The notes beneath the pieces were generated by a model that was given only the letters and a program-made list of their open reading frames with translations, did not search any database and was not told the DNA's origin. This document shows positions 2,686-36,520 of a DNA stretch of 64,000 bases, one piece after another; within the stretch, counting starts at the first letter, position 1; the number at the start of each line of letters is the position of its first letter. The position numbers and the translations under genes were made by a program. The stretch is from assembly GCF_007752135.1 (NCBI RefSeq), contig NZ_CP036298.1:5394001-5458000 (forward strand). Direction: 5' to 3'. Origin of the DNA: Aureliella helgolandensis (GTDB lineage Bacteria; Planctomycetota; Planctomycetia; Pirellulales; Pirellulaceae).

Positions 2686-3420
2686 TTAGTTTGACATTCC
2701 GCCGTCGGCGCGGATGTGTTGTCCAGTAATCCACTTTCCATCGCTGCCCGCCAAAAAAGAGACAACGGATGCAATGTCCTCCGGCGTGCCCAAGCGACCG
2801 AATGCGGATAAGTCGACGAACTCTTGCTTTTTTGCCTCGTCGCTGTCGTCAAACATTCCAGGGCTGGTCGCGCCTGGCCGGACGCTATTGACCGTGATAT
2901 TTCGCTTACCCACTTCGTTTGACAATGAGCTCAGCATAGCATCGACGGCGGCTTTAGTGGCTGAGTAGATTCCAGTGCCTTGGCGAGGTCGCTCGGCAAG
3001 TTGTGATGAGGTGAATATGATTCGGCCGTTGTCTCGGACCGTTCGTGCGGCCTCACGAAGAGTCAGAAATGCTCCTCGAACGTTGACAGCGATCAGTTTT
3101 TCAAAGTCTGCCAATTCGACATCAGCAATCGGCCCAAAACCGGATGTGCCCGCATTCGCGACTACGATGTCGACTCCGCCGAAACGCGAGACAACTTTGG
3201 CAAACAAGCTGGCGACGTCAGCTTCTTCAGCAACATTCGCACTCGCGATTATTGCCCTTCCTCCCGACGCTTGGATTTCGGCGCACACCCTGACGGCAGA
3301 GTCTTTATCAGTGCCATAGTGAACTGCCACATTGAAGCCGTCCGCCGCAAGTCTGCGGCAGATTCCATTGCCAATTCCGCCCGAACCGCCGGTCACGATC
3401 GCCGTCCTTTTTTCATTCAT
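2686..3420 (-). CDS. SDR-family NAD(P)-dependent oxidoreductase (FabG-like)
   Basis: A 244-residue classical short-chain dehydrogenase/reductase: Rossmann dinucleotide motif TGGSGGIG at residues 11-18, NAG motif near 89, catalytic Ser in FTSSQ and the YSATK (Tyr/Lys) active site, and the usual C-terminal ITGQHIRADGG. The length matches the 240-260 residue norm. The substrate cannot be told; it is related to 3-oxoacyl-ACP reductases and glucose dehydrogenases. The ATG at 3420 is preceded by a G-rich stretch. It heads a run of minus-strand genes (DoxX-like, peroxiredoxin-like, YHYH) lying upstream of it in reading direction, with an 84-bp gap to the DoxX-like gene. Confidence 0.9.
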   Translation of the reverse strand: MNEKRTAIVTGGSGGIGNGICRRLAADGFNVAVHYGTDKDSAVRVCAEIQASGGRAIIASANVAEEADVASLFAKVVSRFGGVDIVVANAGTSGFGPIADVELADFEKLIAVNVRGAFLTLREAARTVRDNGRIIFTSSQLAERPRQGTGIYSATKAAVDAMLSSLSNEVGKRNITVNSVRPGATSPGMFDDSDEAKKQEFVDLSAFGRLGTPEDIASVVSFLAGSDGKWITGQHIRADGGMSN

Positions 3421-3504
3421 CGCTATGTCGTTTGCCCCCTAAAAGTTCTCGAGTCAGTCATCACATCAACCGTCCATCCATAGCCTGCTCACAGAACTCT
3501 CGGT

Positions 3505-3987
3505 TTACGCCACCTGTTGCGACGCGTTAGGCTGCACACGCGGTCTTCGGCATCCATCAACGGTATAAGTGTCGAATTCTCGTAACAACCAGAGTGTAAT
3601 ACATGCGGACAGCATTGGAATTGCGGCGAAGAACAACAAGTGTGGGTAGGTCCACGGGTCGATGTAAGCACTCCATGAACTGAAAGTGGAAATCGCGTGC
3701 AGACCGAGGATAATTCCGTACGACCATGTCCGAAATGCTCCCACCAGAAATACGAGCAGAATGACCATTTGCACGCCGCCAACGACATAGGCGAGTAGCT
3801 CACTCAGCTCAGAAATTCCGTAAAACTTTTTGAAAACCGCCGCCGCGTGTTCAGGGTTAATGAACTTGTCGATCGTCCACATCACAAAGACGCTGAAGAT
3901 CCCCACTCGAATCAATAGCAGACTCCATGCCAGCCGAGTTCGAGCACGTTCATTCAGGGGTTGTTCTGGTTGTTGAAGATCTGACAT
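3505..3987 (-). CDS. DoxX-like four-helix membrane protein
   Basis: 160 residues with four hydrophobic segments (~22-40, 60-82, 86-105, 115-135), the layout of the DoxX/MauE-like family of small integral membrane proteins, which are often linked to redox or thiol metabolism. A recognisable N-terminal RLAWSLLLIRVGIF segment and a charged loop (DKFINPEH) follow the family style. The ATG at 3987 has an AGGAA Shine-Dalgarno sequence five bases upstream. It is 68 bp downstream of a peroxiredoxin-like gene on the same strand, so an oxidative-stress context is plausible. Family assignment is by pattern only. Confidence 0.7.
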   Translation of the reverse strand: MSDLQQPEQPLNERARTRLAWSLLLIRVGIFSVFVMWTIDKFINPEHAAAVFKKFYGISELSELLAYVVGGVQMVILLVFLVGAFRTWSYGIILGLHAISTFSSWSAYIDPWTYPHLLFFAAIPMLSACITLWLLREFDTYTVDGCRRPRVQPNASQQVA

Positions 3988-4055
3988 ATCAGTTCCTGTG
4001 TTGGTTTAGCATTGCTGGATTGCTGGATTGCCAACTGTGTGAACCATCGAGTTCC

Positions 4056-4796
4056 CTACCGAGTGGTGATTGCCTGGACAGCAGTGATTACATTCGATGG
4101 TTCCGCTCGAATTTTGTAATCTGCGTCCAGAAATGCGTAGACAATTTTTCCGGATTGATCGACCACGTAGGTCGCAGAGAGCGGCAACTCGAGTTGATCG
4201 TTACCGTTGAATTCTTTTAGCCTGCCACTAGCGCGATACATCGGAGCGATTGGCGCCGGCAATTCGAAAACAATTCCATACTTCTTGGCCAATTCGAGGT
4301 TTGCATCGTGCAGTGCGACGATGCTCAGGTCATTTGCCTCGGCCGTCTCTTTTGCTCTCTCGGGTAGTTCAGGCGTCAACACGACAAGCCTTGCACCTGT
4401 ATTCTCGATTTTGTCGAGGTTCTGCTGCATCTTCCGAAGCTGGATGCTGCAATAGGGACACCAGCCGCCGCGATACCACATTAAGACAACAGGCCCTTCC
4501 TTCCAGAGTTCACTCAGGGTGATGGTATTGCCTTTCCAATCCTTCAGTTGGTTATCAACGGCCGTGTCGCCCACTTGCTTGGCTGACTTCTCAATGCCGG
4601 TAGCACGCACCAAGTCGATTCCTTTTTGGAATGCTGCGACTCGATCTGCCGAACCGAGTTTGGCGTTTTGGGCCGACTTGTCAGCGAGGAGTTGGGAGAG
4701 CGTTTTTGCGGTTTCTGATTCTTGTGACATCGCGGAGGTGATGAGAGAGTTCGAAGCGAAAAGGAACAGTAGGACGAGGTGGATGGTGCGATTCAC
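4056..4796 (-). CDS. Exported peroxiredoxin-like (AhpC/TSA) thiol oxidoreductase
   Basis: 246 residues: a signal peptide (residues 1-23, ending SAMSQ), a helical stretch, then a thioredoxin-fold AhpC/TSA domain (~70-240). The active site is GGWCPYCSIQL, a CxxC variant of the peroxiredoxin-like family, which reduces peroxides or acts as thiol-disulfide oxidoreductase; its exact activity is not determined. The start is GTG at 4796 with only a weak ribosome site. It lies between the YHYH gene and the DoxX-like gene, all minus strand with gaps of 106 and 68 bp, suggesting a small envelope redox operon. Confidence 0.85.
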   Translation of the reverse strand: MNRTIHLVLLFLFASNSLITSAMSQESETAKTLSQLLADKSAQNAKLGSADRVAAFQKGIDLVRATGIEKSAKQVGDTAVDNQLKDWKGNTITLSELWKEGPVVLMWYRGGWCPYCSIQLRKMQQNLDKIENTGARLVVLTPELPERAKETAEANDLSIVALHDANLELAKKYGIVFELPAPIAPMYRASGRLKEFNGNDQLELPLSATYVVDQSGKIVYAFLDADYKIRAEPSNVITAVQAITTR

Positions 4797-6135: not shown

Positions 6136-6247
6136 CGGGCTGTTGATTTAATGGCGACTTGAATTCTAACGCGGAGGTAGCGTCCCGAATTGCCCTATAG
6201 CAGCAACCATCGACCCTTACGCTCGCAGCGGGTGACTCAACAGCCCG
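6136..6247 (-). mobile_element. Short inverted-repeat element, family 1, copy 1 (112 bp)
   Basis: Bounded by CGGGCTGTTGA and its exact complement TCAACAGCCCG (the match extends one base further each side, giving 12-bp perfect ends at 6135-6248). The interior, read on the minus strand, matches copies at 13003-13118 and 19869-19984 over most of its length, including a shared GGGACGCTACCTCCGCG-type core. No coding capacity. Sits in the divergent region between the YHYH gene and the CotH protein gene. Flanking tetranucleotides (TAAA/TAGG) are not identical. Confidence 0.8.
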
Positions 6248-13002: not shown

Positions 13003-13118
13003 CGAGCTGATGAAATAGTAACGCGCTGCCTGAGCGAGGACAGATGGTTGCCGCTACAGGTCAATTTGGGACGCTACCTCCGCCTTAAAATTCAAATCGC
13101 TATTCAATGCACATCCCG
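13003..13118 (+). mobile_element. Short inverted-repeat element, family 1, copy 2 (116 bp, degraded ends)
   Basis: Matches copy 3 (19869-19984) over its length with scattered substitutions: shared AAATAGTAAC near the left end, then GTTGCCGCTAC, TTTGGGACGC, ACCTCCGC and TTAAAATTCAAAT. The terminal octamers are decayed to CGAGCTGA and ACATCCCG. Abuts the 3' end of the broken glycosyltransferase. Confidence 0.7.
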
Positions 13119-13617
13119 TTGCGGCAAGGGCGTAGTTAGCGATTGTATACAAGATTTTGTAACCGGCCTTAAACGCACCTTAAATCGCACCACTAATTTT
13201 GCTCTTACCAATGCGACAGCGATAGGGCACCGGAATCTCAAGCGTCCGCATCTTCTGTTGCGTCGCCTTGATCTGCATCTCGACGGTCCAGCCAAAGCTG
13301 GTGTCTTTCATCTGCAGTCGATTGACTTTATCCAACCGAATCGCACGAAGGGGCCCGAGATCGGTATATTGCTCGCCCCAAATAGTTCGCATGAGGTAAC
13401 GAGCGAGCTTATTGCCTAGCACACTCTGCAACGGCATCGCGCCAGGCTCGCGTTTACCGAGCAATCGCGAACCAAGTACGAAATCAGCTTCCCCACGGTG
13501 AAGAGGCATTACCAGTTCGGGTAGTATTTCAGGATGATCACTGTAGTCAGCATCCAAGAAGACGACGTACCGAATTGGCTGGCGAATGGCTACGTTGTCC
13601 GACGAGGATTCGCTAAC
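13119..13617 (-). pseudogene. Broken family 2 glycosyltransferase (dolichol-phosphate-mannose-synthase-like)
   Basis: Read on the minus strand from 13617: RYVVFLDADYSDHPEILPEL, then FVLGSRLLGKREPGAMP, YTDLGPLRAIR and GKSKISGAI, which is the catalytic and C-terminal half of a GT2 glycosyltransferase that would transfer sugar to a lipid or protein acceptor. The N-terminal half is missing where a truncated IS256-family copy begins at 13617. An in-frame TAA at 13180-13182 then interrupts the C-terminus; after it the frame continues with GAFKAGYKILYTIANYAL, the expected membrane tail. Two independent lesions show the gene is dead. Confidence 0.8.
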
Positions 13618-14514
13618 GTGATCTGTCGGGACATACGTGGTGCATTCTGATGCTCGACGGTATCCGGCTAAGCTCAGACCAGACGGCAGTGGTTGCTCTC
13701 GGCATTGATTCTGAAGGCTGCAAGCATGTGCTCGACTTTGCGCTGGGCAGTAGTGAAAATGCCGTTGTATCCAATGAATTGCTGGCTCGCTTGGCCCGTC
13801 GCGGCTTTACTTGCTCGCTGCGCTTACTGGCTGTCCTGGATGGCAGCGACGTGCTTCGCAAAGCGGTCAAGGAGCACTTCCCCGACTCGGTCATCCAACG
13901 CTGCTTAGTTCACAAGGAACGCAACATCCGTGGCAAGCTATCGAAGCGTCATACGGGTGAACTCGCTCGACTGTTTAGACGACTCCGTAGCGTGCAGGGC
14001 TATACCGCCGCACAAGAGGTCGTCGACGAGCTAGAGGCATTCCTTGAGCCACTCAATGCCGAAGCGTGTAAGAGCCTTCATGAGGCCGGTGAGGACCTGC
14101 TAGCCCTACACCGACTCGAAGTGCCAAACACGCTCCATCGTTCACTGCTAAGCACCAACGCGATTGAGAACTCCTTCCTGAACACGCGTCGCCGCTTGGG
14201 GCGTGTAACACGATTCCGAGCTGACACGGATCAGGCGAGTCGCTGGCTGTCGTACGCACTGCTTGAGGCCGAAAAGGGGTTCCATCGAATCAGCGGCCAC
14301 AAGCAACTACCTACGCTGATTGCCGCCCTAGCGAGAGAACACGAGTCTACACCAACAAAGCCGCCGTCGGGGCCCGTGCCGTCGCCTACGGCTCCGGCAA
14401 CGGAACGGGCCCCATCACTTTAGTTCCACCACCTGTTTGATCCTTAAGACCTTTTCCAGTACCCTTTAGCCAGCGAGACCACTACCAGTTTTTACAACGC
14501 AGGGGACATCCCGC
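13617..14514 (+). mobile_element. IS256-family element copy 1, 5'-truncated
   Basis: Nearly identical to the right ~890 bp of the copy at 35048-36520, from the CGTGATCTGTCGG join at 13617 to the right terminus near ACATCCC at ~14514. The left end and about the first 160 codons of the transposase are missing, so it cannot move by itself. The join falls within the glycosyltransferase remnant. Confidence 0.85.
13619..14423 (+). pseudogene. IS256 (Mutator)-family transposase, C-terminal ~265 residues
   Basis: Frame open from the truncation point to the stop at 14423; the first internal ATG is at 13650. It contains the first catalytic Asp in the MLDGIRLSSDQ region, the DGSDVLRKAVKEHFPD segment with the second Asp, the QRCLVHKERN motif typical of Mutator/IS256 transposases, and STNAIENSF with the catalytic Glu. 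The ALGSSENAVV segment is intact here, unlike the copy at 35.7 kb, which lost one G at this point. Without its N-terminal DNA-binding part it should be inactive. Confidence 0.85.
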
Positions 14515-15362: not shown

Positions 15363-16049
15363 TTAGCGGTCACAGGACCACCATTCCAACAACGACGTAG
15401 GCCAGTACGCATGCGGAAGAGGCATGGTGAAGTGCGGCTGTTGCGCTTCGACAACAATTGGCAGCAGCGACTGGCATAGAACTCCATTCGGCAAATGGCT
15501 GCGTCGGAAAAGCGTAGTCGACACGAAAAATGTACCGCAAGGTGCTATTCTATCCGGTACCTGCTTACCTACGACTCGTGTTGTTTCTGCGTCTAAGTAG
15601 TCAGCCCAGGGTTGCAGTTCACTATCAAGCTCAGAGGCGTATCTTAGCCCGGCAAGTGCGACCGCAACGCGTTCCAACTGGCTAGGTGGGGGCTCGACGC
15701 TATCGTCGAGCGAGAACACAAGTTCGCCTGCACGATCGTAAGTATAAGAATCGACCGATGGGGCGGGCAAGTAGAGTTCGTCATTGGCCTGTATCACATG
15801 CCCCCAGACAATCTTGCCTTTGCTGAAGAGTCGCCGAAGTGTTCGATTCTGAACCAATTTAGCTAACGCATCCCCCCAGCGTAACTTTGTTACCCATGGC
15901 GGATTCACTAAAAGCATCTGCTCGGTGGCTGCATCGAAGTATCGAGGAGACTCACCGAACGTAACTCGACACTCTTTTAGCCACCGATCCCATTGCCTCG
16001 TCGGGATTTCATCGAAGAATTGATCAATTATTCCGTTGTGCATCTTCAT
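15363..16049 (-). CDS. Hypothetical protein, coupled to upstream lipoprotein gene
   Basis: 228 residues, soluble, not recognised. Composition is normal for a globular protein (Trp-rich: WDRW, WWSCDR; an acidic central part), no signal peptide and no membrane segment. The start (ATG 16049, or the next ATG two codons on) lies inside the 3' end of the 16024-17295 gene, a 26-bp overlap in another frame, so the two are probably translationally coupled and may work together. Confidence 0.6.
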   Translation of the reverse strand: MKMHNGIIDQFFDEIPTRQWDRWLKECRVTFGESPRYFDAATEQMLLVNPPWVTKLRWGDALAKLVQNRTLRRLFSKGKIVWGHVIQANDELYLPAPSVDSYTYDRAGELVFSLDDSVEPPPSQLERVAVALAGLRYASELDSELQPWADYLDAETTRVVGKQVPDRIAPCGTFFVSTTLFRRSHLPNGVLCQSLLPIVVEAQQPHFTMPLPHAYWPTSLLEWWSCDR

Positions 16050-17295
16050 CCGCGATTATCAAGTCTTGTCGCAGCATTTTGTAGGTAAAGGACTGCCACT
16101 TATCCCAATTGCAGGTAATCGTCTCGTCGTCATTAACAGCGACAACGGTAACAAATTCCCAACGCCCCGCGTAGCAAGCTTGCAACTTCATCCCCACCCT
16201 CACTTTAGTATCGGCAGCAACCAAGGCGTGACCATTTGGAATAGGGATATCGATCTTGTAACGTTTCAGTGAGTACTGGGTCGACGGCGACTTTGCAGCG
16301 ACCTCCGTCGCATTTTGGTTCGCTACGATTAAGTCTTCTCGCATCATCTTGTAGGTGTAAGTTGGGAAGCTGTCCCAATTGCAGGTAATCGTTCCATCAT
16401 CATTCGTTGCGACGACCGTAACTGTCGACCACTTACGTGCATAGCAAGCTTTTAGCTTGGTTCCAACTTCAATCACAGTTTCAGGGCCAACGATGCTGTA
16501 GTCAGTTGGAACGGGAATATTGATTGCATATCGTTTGAGCGAATACTCCTTTGGTTTTGACTCGGCCTTAGGCCGCCCAAGATTCGCCGCAGCCTCGCGC
16601 CGAGACATGCTTGGGCGCTCGGCCGGCTTTGCTACCGTTTCAGGTAAGTGAGGGACAGCGGTCGCTGTTTCTTCTACGCTAGTCGGCTGCTCCGCTTGAT
16701 ACGCTTCGAGCGTCTGCTGAATGGCGATTAAAGCTTGTCGTTCGTTATTCCCCGCGCCCTGTTTGACCACGTCGCCATTCTTTTGCGTGAAGACCAAGTA
16801 AGTCTTGATCCGGCCTACAACGTTGGTTTCCTCGCGTAGCTCAACCGAAGCTAAGCCAGCGAAAGGGATCACCAGCTCTTTGCCGCCAGTTTGAGAATAG
16901 GTGGATGCCATTTCAACGCGGTCCGGCCAGACTGTGACATGCAGCTTGTTGGGAAAAAGTAACGATATCGCAGCAAGAAATAATCCGATGAAACCCATCA
17001 TTCCACCGAACAGCCCCAATCCCACGCGCTGAGCAACTGAAAGTTTTTCGCCCGGCTTGGCTCTCCGATTCTTGGGCTTTCGGTCAGGCAGGATGCTTCC
17101 AGCAATTGCCACAATCCCTAGACCGATTAATCCGAGCCCCAGCAGGGTGCGAATGATCGTTCCAACCGCTGAAGTTTGAAAGACTTTGGCATCGCCCTCG
17201 ATTATGCGCATCTCGGTACAGCCCGAACATGCAAGAACCGCAACGGTGAGAGACCAGAAAAGAATTCCACGCATAATCCGAACCTGTGAACTCAT
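16024..17295 (-). CDS. Membrane lipoprotein with two C-terminal SH3/Tudor-like repeats
   Basis: 423 residues. A signal peptide ends in a lipobox (VLACSGC), then two hydrophobic segments (~45-68 and ~90-115), a domain resembling a membrane-proximal PH-like fold (~115-200), a Pro/Ala/Glu linker, and two ~76-residue repeats (~249-325 and ~337-413). Each repeat reads YSLKRYxIxIPxP ... VGxKLxACYAxxW ... VTVVAxNDDxTITCNWD ... TYKMxRxDLI, which resembles small beta-barrel SH3/Tudor/SHD1-type modules. Function unknown; anchoring at the membrane with a binding role is inference. The downstream gene overlaps its end by 26 bp. Confidence 0.7.
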   Translation of the reverse strand: MSSQVRIMRGILFWSLTVAVLACSGCTEMRIIEGDAKVFQTSAVGTIIRTLLGLGLIGLGIVAIAGSILPDRKPKNRRAKPGEKLSVAQRVGLGLFGGMMGFIGLFLAAISLLFPNKLHVTVWPDRVEMASTYSQTGGKELVIPFAGLASVELREETNVVGRIKTYLVFTQKNGDVVKQGAGNNERQALIAIQQTLEAYQAEQPTSVEETATAVPHLPETVAKPAERPSMSRREAAANLGRPKAESKPKEYSLKRYAINIPVPTDYSIVGPETVIEVGTKLKACYARKWSTVTVVATNDDGTITCNWDSFPTYTYKMMREDLIVANQNATEVAAKSPSTQYSLKRYKIDIPIPNGHALVAADTKVRVGMKLQACYAGRWEFVTVVAVNDDETITCNWDKWQSFTYKMLRQDLIIADEDAQRNN

Positions 17296-19380: not shown

Positions 19381-20210
19381 AGAAAATTGCTGTTGAAACA
19401 TTTCGGACTAGTTTGCCCTGCGACCACAGGCCATCTCAATACGATCCTTCCCCTAGGAAAAGAGCTTCGAAACCGTAGGCACCAGGTCACGCTGTATGGA
19501 AAACTCGATGCCGAGAAAGCGGTAGCGGATGCGGAGCTCGGGTACGTCGCAATCGGGGAAATCGAATTTCCGGTTGGAAGTATGACGACTGTGTTGAAGA
19601 ATCTCGGTCAACTTCAGGGGCGTGCGGCATTGGCTTACACGGTCCAATTGTTCAACGAAAATGCCAGTGTCTTTTTGCGAGATGGTCCCGAGGTTTTGCG
19701 TCGAACGGGCGTCGATGGTTTGATCGTTGACCAAGCGACTCCCGAAGCCGGTTCGGTGGCTGATTATCTCGGAATCCCGTTCGTGAACCTATGTAGCGCT
19801 GTCCTACTCAACCGTGACGATCTCGTTCCATCACCCTTTACTTCCTGGAAGTACAACCCGTCGCTCTTCGGGCTGTCCAAATAGTAACCCGCTACGTGAG
19901 CAAGGAAAGATCGTTGCCGCTACAAGGCAGTTTGGGACGCAACCTCCGCGTTAAAATTCAAATTGCTATTAAATCAACAGCCCGTCTTGGGGCGGGTACG
20001 GAATCGAATCGGCTACGGAGTCTCAGGTCGACTATTAAGGCCAGTCATGCGCACGATTGACGATCATCGCAAACGGTGGAAACTGCCGGTGCATGGTGCC
20101 GCGAACGATCGGTTTCTCATCTCAAGCTCGCCGATACACCGAATCACTTCCACTCAGCCACTCCTTCCCCGCCCTCAATACTCGTTCCTGCGCCAGCGTT
20201 CCATCGTCAA
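19381..20210 (+). pseudogene. UGT-like (macrolide-type, GT1) glycosyltransferase interrupted by a 116-bp element
   Basis: First part (19381-19868) encodes KHFGLVCPATTGHLNTILPL and on through GVDGLIVDQATPEAGSVADY and IPFVNLCSAVLLNRDD, the N-terminal Rossmann half of a UDP-sugar glycosyltransferase. A family-1 element occupies 19869-19984. Directly after it the same protein resumes (GRVRNRIGYGVSGRLLRPVM ... HRKRWKLPVH) in frame. A later frameshift near 20105 (continuing SHLKLADTPNHF) precedes loss of all further similarity by ~20210. The native start seems lost too, so the gene was decaying. The second, nucleotide-sugar-binding domain is absent. Confidence 0.8.
19869..19984 (+). mobile_element. 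Short inverted-repeat element, family 1, copy 3 (116 bp), inserted in a glycosyltransferase gene
   Basis: Ends CGGGCTGT (19869-19876) and ACAGCCCG (19977-19984), flanked on both sides by TCTT (19865-19868 and 19985-19988). Removing the element and one TCTT joins SLL to GRVRNRIGYG in the same frame, giving an uninterrupted glycosyltransferase. This is direct evidence that the family moves and makes a 4-bp target duplication. Same length as copy 2 and related throughout. Confidence 0.8.
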
Positions 20211-35047: not shown

Positions 35048-36520
35048 GGAAGCGTCCGAATCGTTGTTAAAAGTTGAAAGGTGGTCTCCCAGAAGGCAAT
35101 ATATTGCCTTCTGCATTTTCCAATTTACGTCGGTTACCGCCGACGGGGAGACCACCATGACTGAATCTAGTTTGTTGCGCGAGCTTGGGCAAGTTTCGAA
35201 CGCTGAAGTTGGCGAAGTGTTTCGCGAATTCTTACGGGGCTCGATCGTGAAGATGGCCTGTGAGGTAATGGCTGCCGAAGTGGCTGAACTGTGCGGCCCA
35301 AAGCATGCCCCGAGCGATTGTCGGACCTATCGAGCTGGTAGCGCCGCGGGCCGCATCTTGGTCGAAGGGGAACGGGAGTCGGTGACGCGTCCGCGAGTTC
35401 GCGAGCGTCAGGAGGCGGGTGGAAGCCGCGAAGTGGAGCTGATCAGCTACGCCTCCGCCAACGATCCTGAGCAGCTGGAGAAGGCTGTAATTCAAGCGTT
35501 GATGTCTGGGGTAAGCACTCGTCAGATGTCTGTAGTGAAGCCGAAGTCGCCAGGCGTAAGCCGCTCGAGCGTCTCGCGTCTATGGCAAGAGGCGGGAACA
35601 CGATTGATCGACGAGCTACGCAGCCGTGATCTGTCGGGGCATACGTGGTGCATTCTGATGCTCGATGGTATCCGGCTAAGCTCAGACCAGACGGCAGTGG
35701 TTGCTCTCGGTATTGATTCTGAAGGCTGCAAGCATGTGCTCGACTTTGCGCTGGCAGTAGTGAAAATGCCGTTGTATCCAATGAATTGCTGGCTCGCTTG
35801 GCCCGTCGCGGCTTTACTTGCTCGCAGCGATTACTGGCAGTCCTGGATGGCAGCGATGTGCTTCGCAAAGCGGTCAAGGAGCACTTCCCCGACTCGGTCA
35901 TCCAACGCTGCTTAGTTCACAAGGAACGCAACATTCGTGGCAAGCTATCGAAGCGTCATACGGGTGAACTCGCTCGGCTGTTTAGACGACTCCGTAGCGT
36001 GCAGGGTTATACCGCCGCACAAGAGGTCGTCGGCGAGCTAGAGGCATTCCTTGAGCCTCTCAATGCCGAAGCGTTTAAGAGCCTTCATGAGGCCGGTGAG
36101 GACCTGCTAGCCCTTCACCGACTCGAAGTGCCAAACACGCTCCATCGTTCACTGCTAAGTACCAACGCGATTGAGAACTCCTTCCTGAACACGCGTCGCC
36201 GCTTGGGGCGTGTAACACGATTCCGAGCCGACACGGATCAGGCGAGTCGCTGGCTGTCCTACGCACTGCTTGAGGCCGAAAAGGGGTTCCATCGAATCAG
36301 CGGCCACAAGGAACTACCTAAGCTGATTGCCGCCCTAGCGAGAGAACACGCGGCTACACCAACAAAGCCGCCGTCGGGGCCCGTGCCGTCGCCTACGGCT
36401 CCGGCGACGGCACGGGCCCCATCACTTTAGTTCCATCACCTGTTTGATCCTTAAGACCTTTTCCAGTACCCTTTAGCCAGCGAGACCACCAACAGTTTTA
36501 ACAACGCAAGGGACATCCCC
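35048..36520 (+). mobile_element. IS256-family insertion sequence copy 2, near full length (~1473 bp)
   Basis: The left end (GGAAGCGTCC ... CGTTGTTAAAAG ... GGTGGTCTCCC from 35048) is an imperfect inverted repeat of the right end (GCGAGACCACC ... GTTTTAACAACGC ... GGACATCCCC to 36520). Between them lies one transposase frame, interrupted by a frameshift. The copy at 13617-14514 matches its right part. No identical 8-9 bp target duplication is seen at the borders. The right end cuts into a minus-strand membrane protein gene. Confidence 0.85.
35157..36430 (+). pseudogene. IS256 (Mutator)-family transposase, frameshifted
   Basis: Starts at ATG 35157 (MTESSLLRELGQVSNAEVGE) after a GGGGAGACCACC leader and reads to ALAVVKMPLYPMN, where the sequence CTGGCAG (around 35752) has lost one G relative to CTGGGCAG in copy 1. 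The right frame then continues from ~35756 through ARLARRGFTCS, DGSDVLRKAVKEHFPDS, QRCLVHKERN and STNAIENSF to the stop at 36428-36430. About 425 residues would result from a repaired frame, within the normal IS256 range. Not active as written unless the frame is changed during expression. Confidence 0.85.

What the first reader, a model, noticed from the sequence alone, without database searches (positions are those of the whole stretch)
19865..19988. A 116-bp inverted-repeat element interrupts a glycosyltransferase gene with a 4-bp duplication
The element has CGGGCTGT/ACAGCCCG ends, is flanked by TCTT on both sides, and deleting it plus one TCTT joins SLL to GRVRNRIGYG in frame, restoring a UGT-like protein. 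This is direct evidence that a tiny non-coding element (three copies in 64 kb) has been mobile. It has no transposase and none in the window shares its ends, so some other enzyme must move it.
Basis: partly seen in the sequence, partly recalled or inferred. Interest (0 to 1): 0.72.

Follow-up and report, generated by a model that had tools for sequence, protein, structure and literature searches.

The report
Palindrome-targeting mini-transposon in a planctomycete
A 116-bp stretch of DNA with no genes of its own has spread widely through a planctomycete's chromosome, landing in the middle of one symmetric type of sequence that it also carries inside itself, and one copy has split a glycosyltransferase gene whose uninterrupted versions exist in two named relatives.

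Summary
Window 19869-19984 is a 116-bp element flanked by TCTT. Aporhodopirellula aestuarii and Rhodopirellula sallentina have the same glycosyltransferase site with one TCTT and no insert. "Restoring" goes too far: the window gene also lacks its 3' half.

The element is one of at least 111 near-full-length copies in 1.02 Mb held of the 8.44-Mb genome. Of 110 with readable flanks, 59 have an exact 4-bp direct repeat (shuffled mean 7.3). It is a type II MITE. It targets CCCnnnGC-(4 bp duplicated)-GCnnnGGG and carries such a site inside, so copies nest.

None of the 100 exact 15-bp ends in this genome bounds a transposase element of its own; some copies hold a foreign IS1182 or intron. The same ends, mostly at 116-119 bp over diverged interiors, occur in other genera of the family and not in 213 sampled genomes outside it. 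Fifteen IS5/IS1182-type insertion sequences elsewhere in the family share its end type (11-13 of 15 bases), with YTAR flanks repeated exactly in 8 of 15. Such a transposase acting in trans is the best, untested, mechanism.

Its REP-like motif also receives the resident IS1182 (15 of 17 copies) and a group II intron (two copies).

The parts
19865..19868 (.). Left copy of the duplicated 4-bp target TCTT
   Evidence: one TCTT in the empty sites of L140 and L141
19869..19984 (+). 116-bp non-autonomous element (MITE) inserted in the glycosyltransferase gene
   Evidence: Profile hit 110.5 bits, exact 4-bp duplication; nearest other copy 96.6% identical
19869..19876 (+). Left terminal inverted repeat CGGGCTGT (common form in the family CGGGCTGTTGAAATA)
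19970..19984 (-). Right terminal inverted repeat, exact CGGGCTGTTGATTTA on the minus strand
   Evidence: Listed as G000:C1:5413970-5413984:-
19886..19905 (+). Internal REP-like motif (AACCCGCTACGTGAGCAAGG; common form AACCCGCYGCGTGAGCAAGG). In other copies it is the site of self-insertion, IS1182 insertion and group II intron insertion
19985..19988 (.). Right copy of the duplicated TCTT
19384..19868 (+). 5' part of the interrupted glycosyltransferase gene; protein 83% (A. aestuarii) and 67% (R. sallentina) identical
19989..20115 (+). Continuation of the gene after the insert; homology to the relatives stops here (3' half lost)
   Evidence: alignment ends at base 1115 of the query, window 20115
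6136..6247 (-). Second copy, 112 bp, perfect 11-bp ends
13003..13118 (+). Third, degenerate copy (ends CGAGCTGATGA / TGCACATCCCG)

Best explanation
[quoted passage not shown] Shown: 11- to 15-bp terminal inverted repeats, near-constant length, many copies, 4-bp target duplications, empty sites in two relatives, and no transposase gene. Shown: it inserts at the centre of a dyad-symmetric target, CCCnnnGC-4bp-GCnnnGGG, and carries a version of that target inside itself, so copies insert into copies. Inferred: a DDE transposase of the IS5/IS1182 type, supplied in trans, binds both ends and joins the element across a 4-bp stagger. Insertion sequences of this type elsewhere in the family have the same kind of ends. 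No such element with these ends was found in this genome, so the source is either lost or an enzyme whose own ends differ.
For: Copies and ends. Duplications: 59 of 110, 43 of 80 in the first set. Empty sites in two named species. Target: of 34 exact-duplication sites outside the REP-like motif, 31 carry at least 2 of 4 half-motifs, against 0.88% of 20,000 random positions. Nesting: 25 of 59 lie in the REP-like motif. IS partner type: 15 elements with ends CAGSSYGYTGAWWWW, whose better end equals the better-fitting MITE end at 11 to 13 of 15 bases; 12 of 15 was reached by 5e-6, and 11 by 1.6e-4, of random 15-mers (the ends were located with a pattern modelled on those found without it). Same MITE ends in other genera: 15 of 18 candidates are 116-119 bp long.
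Against: No autonomous element with these ends was seen in this genome, nor by intersecting the listed ends with DDE_Tnp_1 genes in seven relatives (the list of ends stopped within G138 and showed none of G128). The flanks of the 15 IS elements are identical over 4 bp in only 8 of 15 and differ at one base in 7; the TA core agrees in 15 of 15, so a shorter IS duplication is not excluded. They are YTAR, while only 3 of 34 non-nested MITE duplications here are (all TTAA). First bases differ (CGG against CAG). 51 of 110 copies lack an exact duplication (24 match at 3 of 4 bases, 27 at fewer).
Confidence: 0.65

Rival explanations
1. The resident 17-copy IS1182 (444-codon open frame, 1532 bp) moves the element in trans, or as a composite with its own copy inside.
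For: It is abundant and its copies are nearly identical. Its end TAGGCTGTGAATTTT equals the MITE end at 10 of 15 bases (hand count). It lands in the same REP-like motif in 15 of 17 copies, 8 of 17 inside recognisable copies of the element (read), which leaves composites of 1651 bp with MITE ends outside and an IS1182 within (for example at 3554655, 7303704, 7676784, 8064236).
Against: Its duplication is 3 bp (GCY, exact in 15 of 17), not 4, and it lands on another part of the motif. Its lineage is that of L252 (64% identical; ends GAGGCTGTGAA) rather than of the CAG-ended group. Relatives G013, G106, G127 and G128 carry the MITE ends and had no NF033551 match.
Confidence: 0.14
2. A conserved, domesticated transposase without inverted repeats of its own serves these elements across the family.
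For: The same ends and length occur in several genera while no element bounded by them was found to carry its own transposase.
Against: No candidate enzyme was identified. Only 8 of 149 family genomes, own included, had a perfect pair, and none of 6 other same-genus genomes, which fits patchy mobile elements better than a resident enzyme.
Confidence: 0.14
3. The repeats are REP/REPIN-like structures spread by a RAYT (Y1) transposase.
For: REP-like interior motif with 249 copies (control 0); 49 of 62 interior-only matches lack both ends.
Against: Terminal inverted repeats with exact 4-bp duplications are not what Y1 enzymes make (established knowledge). Linkage to Y1 genes was not searched.
Confidence: 0.03
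4. A fixed structural part of the gene family, or a sequencing artefact.
For: None found.
Against: Two relatives lack it; many copies elsewhere with their own duplications.
Confidence: 0.01

Closest known systems
Type II MITEs of prokaryotes (review PMC10969869, passages seen)
   Same: Small, no transposase gene, inverted repeats, target duplications, many copies; likeness to autonomous elements confined to the ends
   Different: Dyad-symmetric target, own target carried inside, and one end type at near-constant length in several genera over diverged interiors
IS5/IS1182-type insertion sequences with CAGSSYGYTGAWWWW ends in the same family (L243, L245-L249, L251, L253, L255-L259, L264, L271)
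   Same: End type (11 to 13 of 15 bases on the better end); YTAR flanks, identical over 4 bp in 8 of 15
   Different: They are 1.37-1.50 kb with a transposase frame (one stop inside in L253 and L257); flanks are YTAR; first bases CAG rather than CGG
IS1272 of the IS1182 family (PMC5678879, passages seen)
   Same: Targets inverted-repeat sequences
   Different: Its authors describe replacement of the stem-loop; here 4 bp are duplicated, and complementarity across the target is no more than base composition predicts
IS elements that insert into REP sequences (PMC1525189, abstract seen)
   Same: Repetitive palindromes as insertion hot spots
   Different: Here the hot spot also lies inside a MITE and is used by three unlike kinds of mobile element
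GTAG/CGTC-tagged REPs and RAYTs (PMC3733652, abstract start and passages seen)
   Same: Short palindromic repeats, also reported from Planctomycetes
   Different: This element has inverted-repeat ends and 4-bp duplications

Membership tests
Prokaryotic MITE | Short (about 50-500 bp), no transposase gene | tested here: met
   116 bp; too short for a transposase, and the frames listed across it belong to the interrupted gene or run through it
Prokaryotic MITE | Terminal inverted repeats | tested here: met
   60 perfect pairs, control 0
Prokaryotic MITE | Target-site duplication of fixed length | tested here: met
   Exact repeats in 110 copies: 59 at 4 bp; 4 at 2 bp, 2 at 3 bp, 1 at 5 bp, 0 at 6-9 bp
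Prokaryotic MITE | Empty sites showing past insertion | tested here: met
   Two named species
Prokaryotic MITE | Cognate autonomous element with matching ends | tested here: inconclusive
   None with identical ends found; related end type in 15 IS elements
Non-autonomous derivative of the CAG-ended IS5/IS1182-type group | Ends CAGSSYGYTGAWWWW | tested here: inconclusive
   Up to 13 of 15 bases equal, second base G instead of A; one relative copy, L090, begins CAGGCTGTTGATTTA
Non-autonomous derivative of the CAG-ended IS5/IS1182-type group | YTAR target duplication | tested here: not met
   Only 3 of 34 non-nested duplications in this genome are YTAR; CTAG in the 2 of 7 other-genus copies that have an exact duplication (L081, L090)
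Derivative of the resident IS1182 (17 copies) | 3-bp duplication GCY and ends TAGGCTGTGAA | tested here: not met
REP/REPIN moved by RAYT | No target duplication | tested here: not met
   4-bp duplication in 59 of 110
REP/REPIN moved by RAYT | Linked Y1 transposase | not tested
   No search for Y1 genes beside copies was made
Known structured RNA | Rfam match | tested here: not met
   0 matches up to E = 1 in window 19700-20200

The most novel reading that the evidence does not exclude
A family-wide 'end cassette': one pair of transposase-recognised ends at a near-fixed spacing of about 116-119 bp, under which interiors turn over freely, including host REP-like repeats that themselves serve as landing pads for the cassette, an IS1182 and a group II intron. 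The cassette is served by a trans-acting, possibly domesticated, transposase rather than by an autonomous parent of its own.
Probability: 0.12. Interest if true: 0.7.

Novelty: new variant of a known kind. Interest (0 to 1): 0.42.

Why it matters
It gives a naturally replicated set of insertions with a sharp target rule, usable to study how a DDE transposase reads a symmetric target, and it shows one short motif acting as a hub for three kinds of mobile DNA. It also accounts for many small repeats in this genome. The literature searches made here showed no description of it in their listings; this does not prove that none exists.

Tried and rejected
IS1380 as partner: ends CCCGGATATTGCATCC, flanks CTAG; the neighbouring MITE in G138 is a separate insertion with its own CTAG repeat. 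The 470-aa, 445-aa and 501-aa transposase elements of the genome: their ends (GGTGTCSGACAC, CTTAGTTCGAC, TAGTGTCCGTCCGG) do not match. A 1.18-kb element with perfect ends (2341060-2342242) has no transposase-like frame, only repeats of about 241 bp. IMG/VR: 25 stretches hold the 15-mer; 4 of 25 (L223, L227, L228, L237) had any end-like partner with 2 mismatches, one of them (L223, 125 bp) near the usual spacing and judged chance; the frames of L228 do not look like a transposase. Rfam on the element and on the two intron loci: nothing. Folding as DNA: weak for this copy (z -1.4), -1.8 and -2.6 for two other copies of this genome, -2.2 to -8.2 for five copies of relatives, 4 of 5 at -5.5 or below. 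A cruciform target: complementarity across the dyad equals composition expectation. My early idea that interiors in other genera are wholly unrelated was weakened: the profile of the present element matches 11 of the 38 relatives' loci at E up to 1e-3, and copies of G128 and G138 keep about 0.60 interior identity, at or slightly above the shuffled maximum.

Full report
What was checked. The window is G000:C1:5394001-5458000 of an 8.44-Mb one-contig genome. Window 19869-19984 is a 116-bp sequence with ends CGGGCTGT and ACAGCCCG between two TCTT. The window holds two further copies, at 6136-6247 and, degenerate, at 13003-13118; neither has an exact 4-bp repeat.

It is an insertion. A search with the 5' piece of the interrupted gene (161 residues) returned three named loci: Aporhodopirellula aestuarii ICT_H3.1 (83% identical), Rhodopirellula sallentina SM41 (67%) and, for 40 residues only, R. 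rubra CECT 8075. The first two have one TCTT at the site, no insert, and frames of 426 and 423 codons. The R. rubra gene is itself broken. In the window, homology ends 127 bases after the insert (20115), so the gene has also lost its 3' half; removing the element would not restore a full protein. These are names of relatives; the record of the window's own organism was not shown by the tool.

Copies. CGGGCTGTTGA occurs 222 times in the genome (reversed control 15); 60 perfect pairs have 80-110 bases between their ends (control 0). A profile from 48 perfect copies, searched over 1,017,357 held bases chosen mainly around such ends, gives 263 matches, of which 111 cover nearly the whole model. 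These numbers are lower bounds for the genome. Four copies are identical to another copy, and 41 of 110 are at least 97% identical to one, which suggests recent movement.

Duplication and target. One of the 111 copies lay at a segment edge and was dropped. Of the other 110, 59 have an exact 4-bp direct repeat, against 7.3 on average (maximum 15) when right flanks are shuffled; exact repeats at other lengths number 4 (2 bp), 2 (3 bp), 1 (5 bp) and 0 (6-9 bp). Of the 51 without, 24 match at 3 of 4 bases and 27 at fewer. Of the 59, 25 lie in the REP-like motif AACCCGCYGCGTGAGCAAGG, often recognisably inside another copy. The other 34 show, symmetrised and in percent, C66 C74 C79 nnn G65 C87 - T62 n n A62 - GC nnn GGG; 31 of 34 have at least two of the four half-motifs CCC, GC, GC, GGG, against 0.88% of random positions. 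A few of these 34 (duplications TCAC, TGAC) may still be variants of the REP-like site. Bases at mirror positions are complementary no more often than column composition predicts, so the target looks like a symmetric sequence read by a dimer rather than a paired stem.

No autonomous parent seen here. The genome has 100 CGGGCTGTTGATTTA ends, all in held sequence. Of these, 79 have a partner end (up to 3 mismatches) at the usual spacing; 20 more match the element's profile but are truncated, nested, hold another insertion or, in one case (622001), run into the edge of held sequence; one bounds a 1.18-kb element of tandem repeats. None bounds a transposase element of its own. Some bound composites in which a whole IS1182, with its own ends, or a group II intron lies inside a copy. 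An element with both ends of the CGGGCTGTTGAAATA form was not excluded genome-wide. PF01609 in this genome found 45 matches; the main groups have other ends, a 117-codon fragment (L196) is unrelated to the IS5/IS1182-type proteins compared, and for the single 461-codon gene (L217) no ends were determined.

Distribution. In 149 family genomes, own included, 8 have at least one perfect pair; the 6 other same-genus genomes have none. In a phylum sample of 216 genomes only the own genome matched; 213 of the 216 are outside the family. In 313 kb, taken from same-genus genomes and the three named loci, the profile found nothing. R. sallentina carries one CGGGCTGTTGATTTA end upstream of the gene, beside CCCGACGC-GCAA, with an interior start like that of G115 copies. 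In seven relatives the 15-mer end occurs 2 to 59 times each, against 0 for the control. Of 18 element candidates read there (up to 2 mismatches per 11-bp end, 95-140 bp; two share one start), 15 are 116-119 bp long. Interiors are at or near shuffled identity to the present one, with weak residual similarity in G128 and G138. Of 7 stricter copies, 2 have an exact duplication, CTAG in both.

Likely enzyme. A profile of three IS1182-like transposases matched in 42 of 241 family genomes (in many genomes only seven candidates were scored). Of 30 loci examined, 15 gave ends of the form CAGSSYGYTGAWWWW with YTAR flanks (located there with a pattern modelled on the ends seen). The flanks are identical over 4 bp in 8 of 15 and differ at one base in 7; the central TA agrees in all 15. 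The best, L248 from G424, has CAGCCTGTTGATTTA against CGGGCTGTTGATTTA (13 of 15). L251 has CAGGCTGCTGAAAAA against the other MITE end (12 of 15). By NCBIfam the G115 protein of this group scores above cut-off as IS5 (IS5_4) and below cut-off as IS1182. This makes an IS5/IS1182-type DDE transposase acting in trans the best mechanism. It is an inference: the duplications here are rarely YTAR, the IS duplication could be shorter than 4 bp, and no enzyme was tested.

A shared landing site. The resident IS1182 (NF033551) has 17 copies of 1532 bp with ends TAGGCTGTGAAT and TAGGCTGTGAAG. By reading, 15 of 17 lie in AACCCGC-GCY-GCGTSAGCAAGG or a close variant, 8 of 17 inside recognisable copies of the present element, with an exact 3-bp repeat in 15 of 17. 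A group II intron reverse transcriptase (TIGR04416, 385 bits) lies in two copies of the element (3937844 and 6518872) at the same motif; by eye the two host copies belong to different sequence subtypes, so the insertions look independent. Its ends fit group II introns (GTGCG..AC, recalled), but no Rfam model matched. The motif occurs 249 times in the genome (control 0).

Interior. Of 263 profile matches, 62 are interior only, and 49 of these have neither end within 3 mismatches. The interior is therefore related to repeats without ends. Whether the ends captured a host repeat, or those repeats are decayed elements, is open.

Literature. Listings were seen, passages of PMC3733652, PMC5678879 and PMC10969869, and the abstract and outline of PMC1525189. 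REPs as IS targets, and IS1182-family members that target inverted repeats, are known from these. A MITE with this target rule and these ends was not among what I saw.

Noticed in passing
L147 (G000:C1:3937500-3941550) and L157 (G000:C1:6515180-6519200): A group II intron-like insertion of about 2.1 kb with a 404-aa reverse transcriptase/maturase sits at the same motif in two different copies of the element.
   Followed up: partly
L110, L114, L117, L120, L122-L134: A 17-copy IS1182 (1532 bp) lies in AACCCGC-GCY-GCGTSAGCAAGG or a close variant in 15 of 17 copies, with an exact 3-bp repeat in 15 of 17.
   Followed up: partly
L009 (G000:C1:2341060-2342242): A 1.18-kb element with perfect MITE ends holds several tandem repeats of about 241 bp and no transposase-like frame.
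   Followed up: partly
G000:C1:620337-621937, 1887485-1888514, 2365386-2365762: The REP-like motif occurs in regular arrays with periods of about 226, 202 and 119 bp.
   Followed up: no
window 13617-14512 and 35625-36519: Two stretches of 0.9 kb at least 95% alike; one keeps a 257-aa frame that looks like an IS256-type transposase (by eye, not scanned).
   Followed up: no
G000:C1 segments starting 2903200 (bases 2825-4405) and 3678300 (bases 15369-16958), i.e. L046 and L050: Two copies of a 389-aa gene that looks like a Y1/RAYT-type transposase (by eye, not scanned), bordered by another repeat (GGTGCCATCCACT).
   Followed up: no
L183-L193: An 11-copy, 470-aa transposase element; several copies are flanked by terminator-like GGCCGTTCCGGCTTTT sequences.
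   Followed up: no
L141:2581: R. sallentina carries an end of this type next to CCCGACGC, upstream of the same glycosyltransferase gene.
   Followed up: partly
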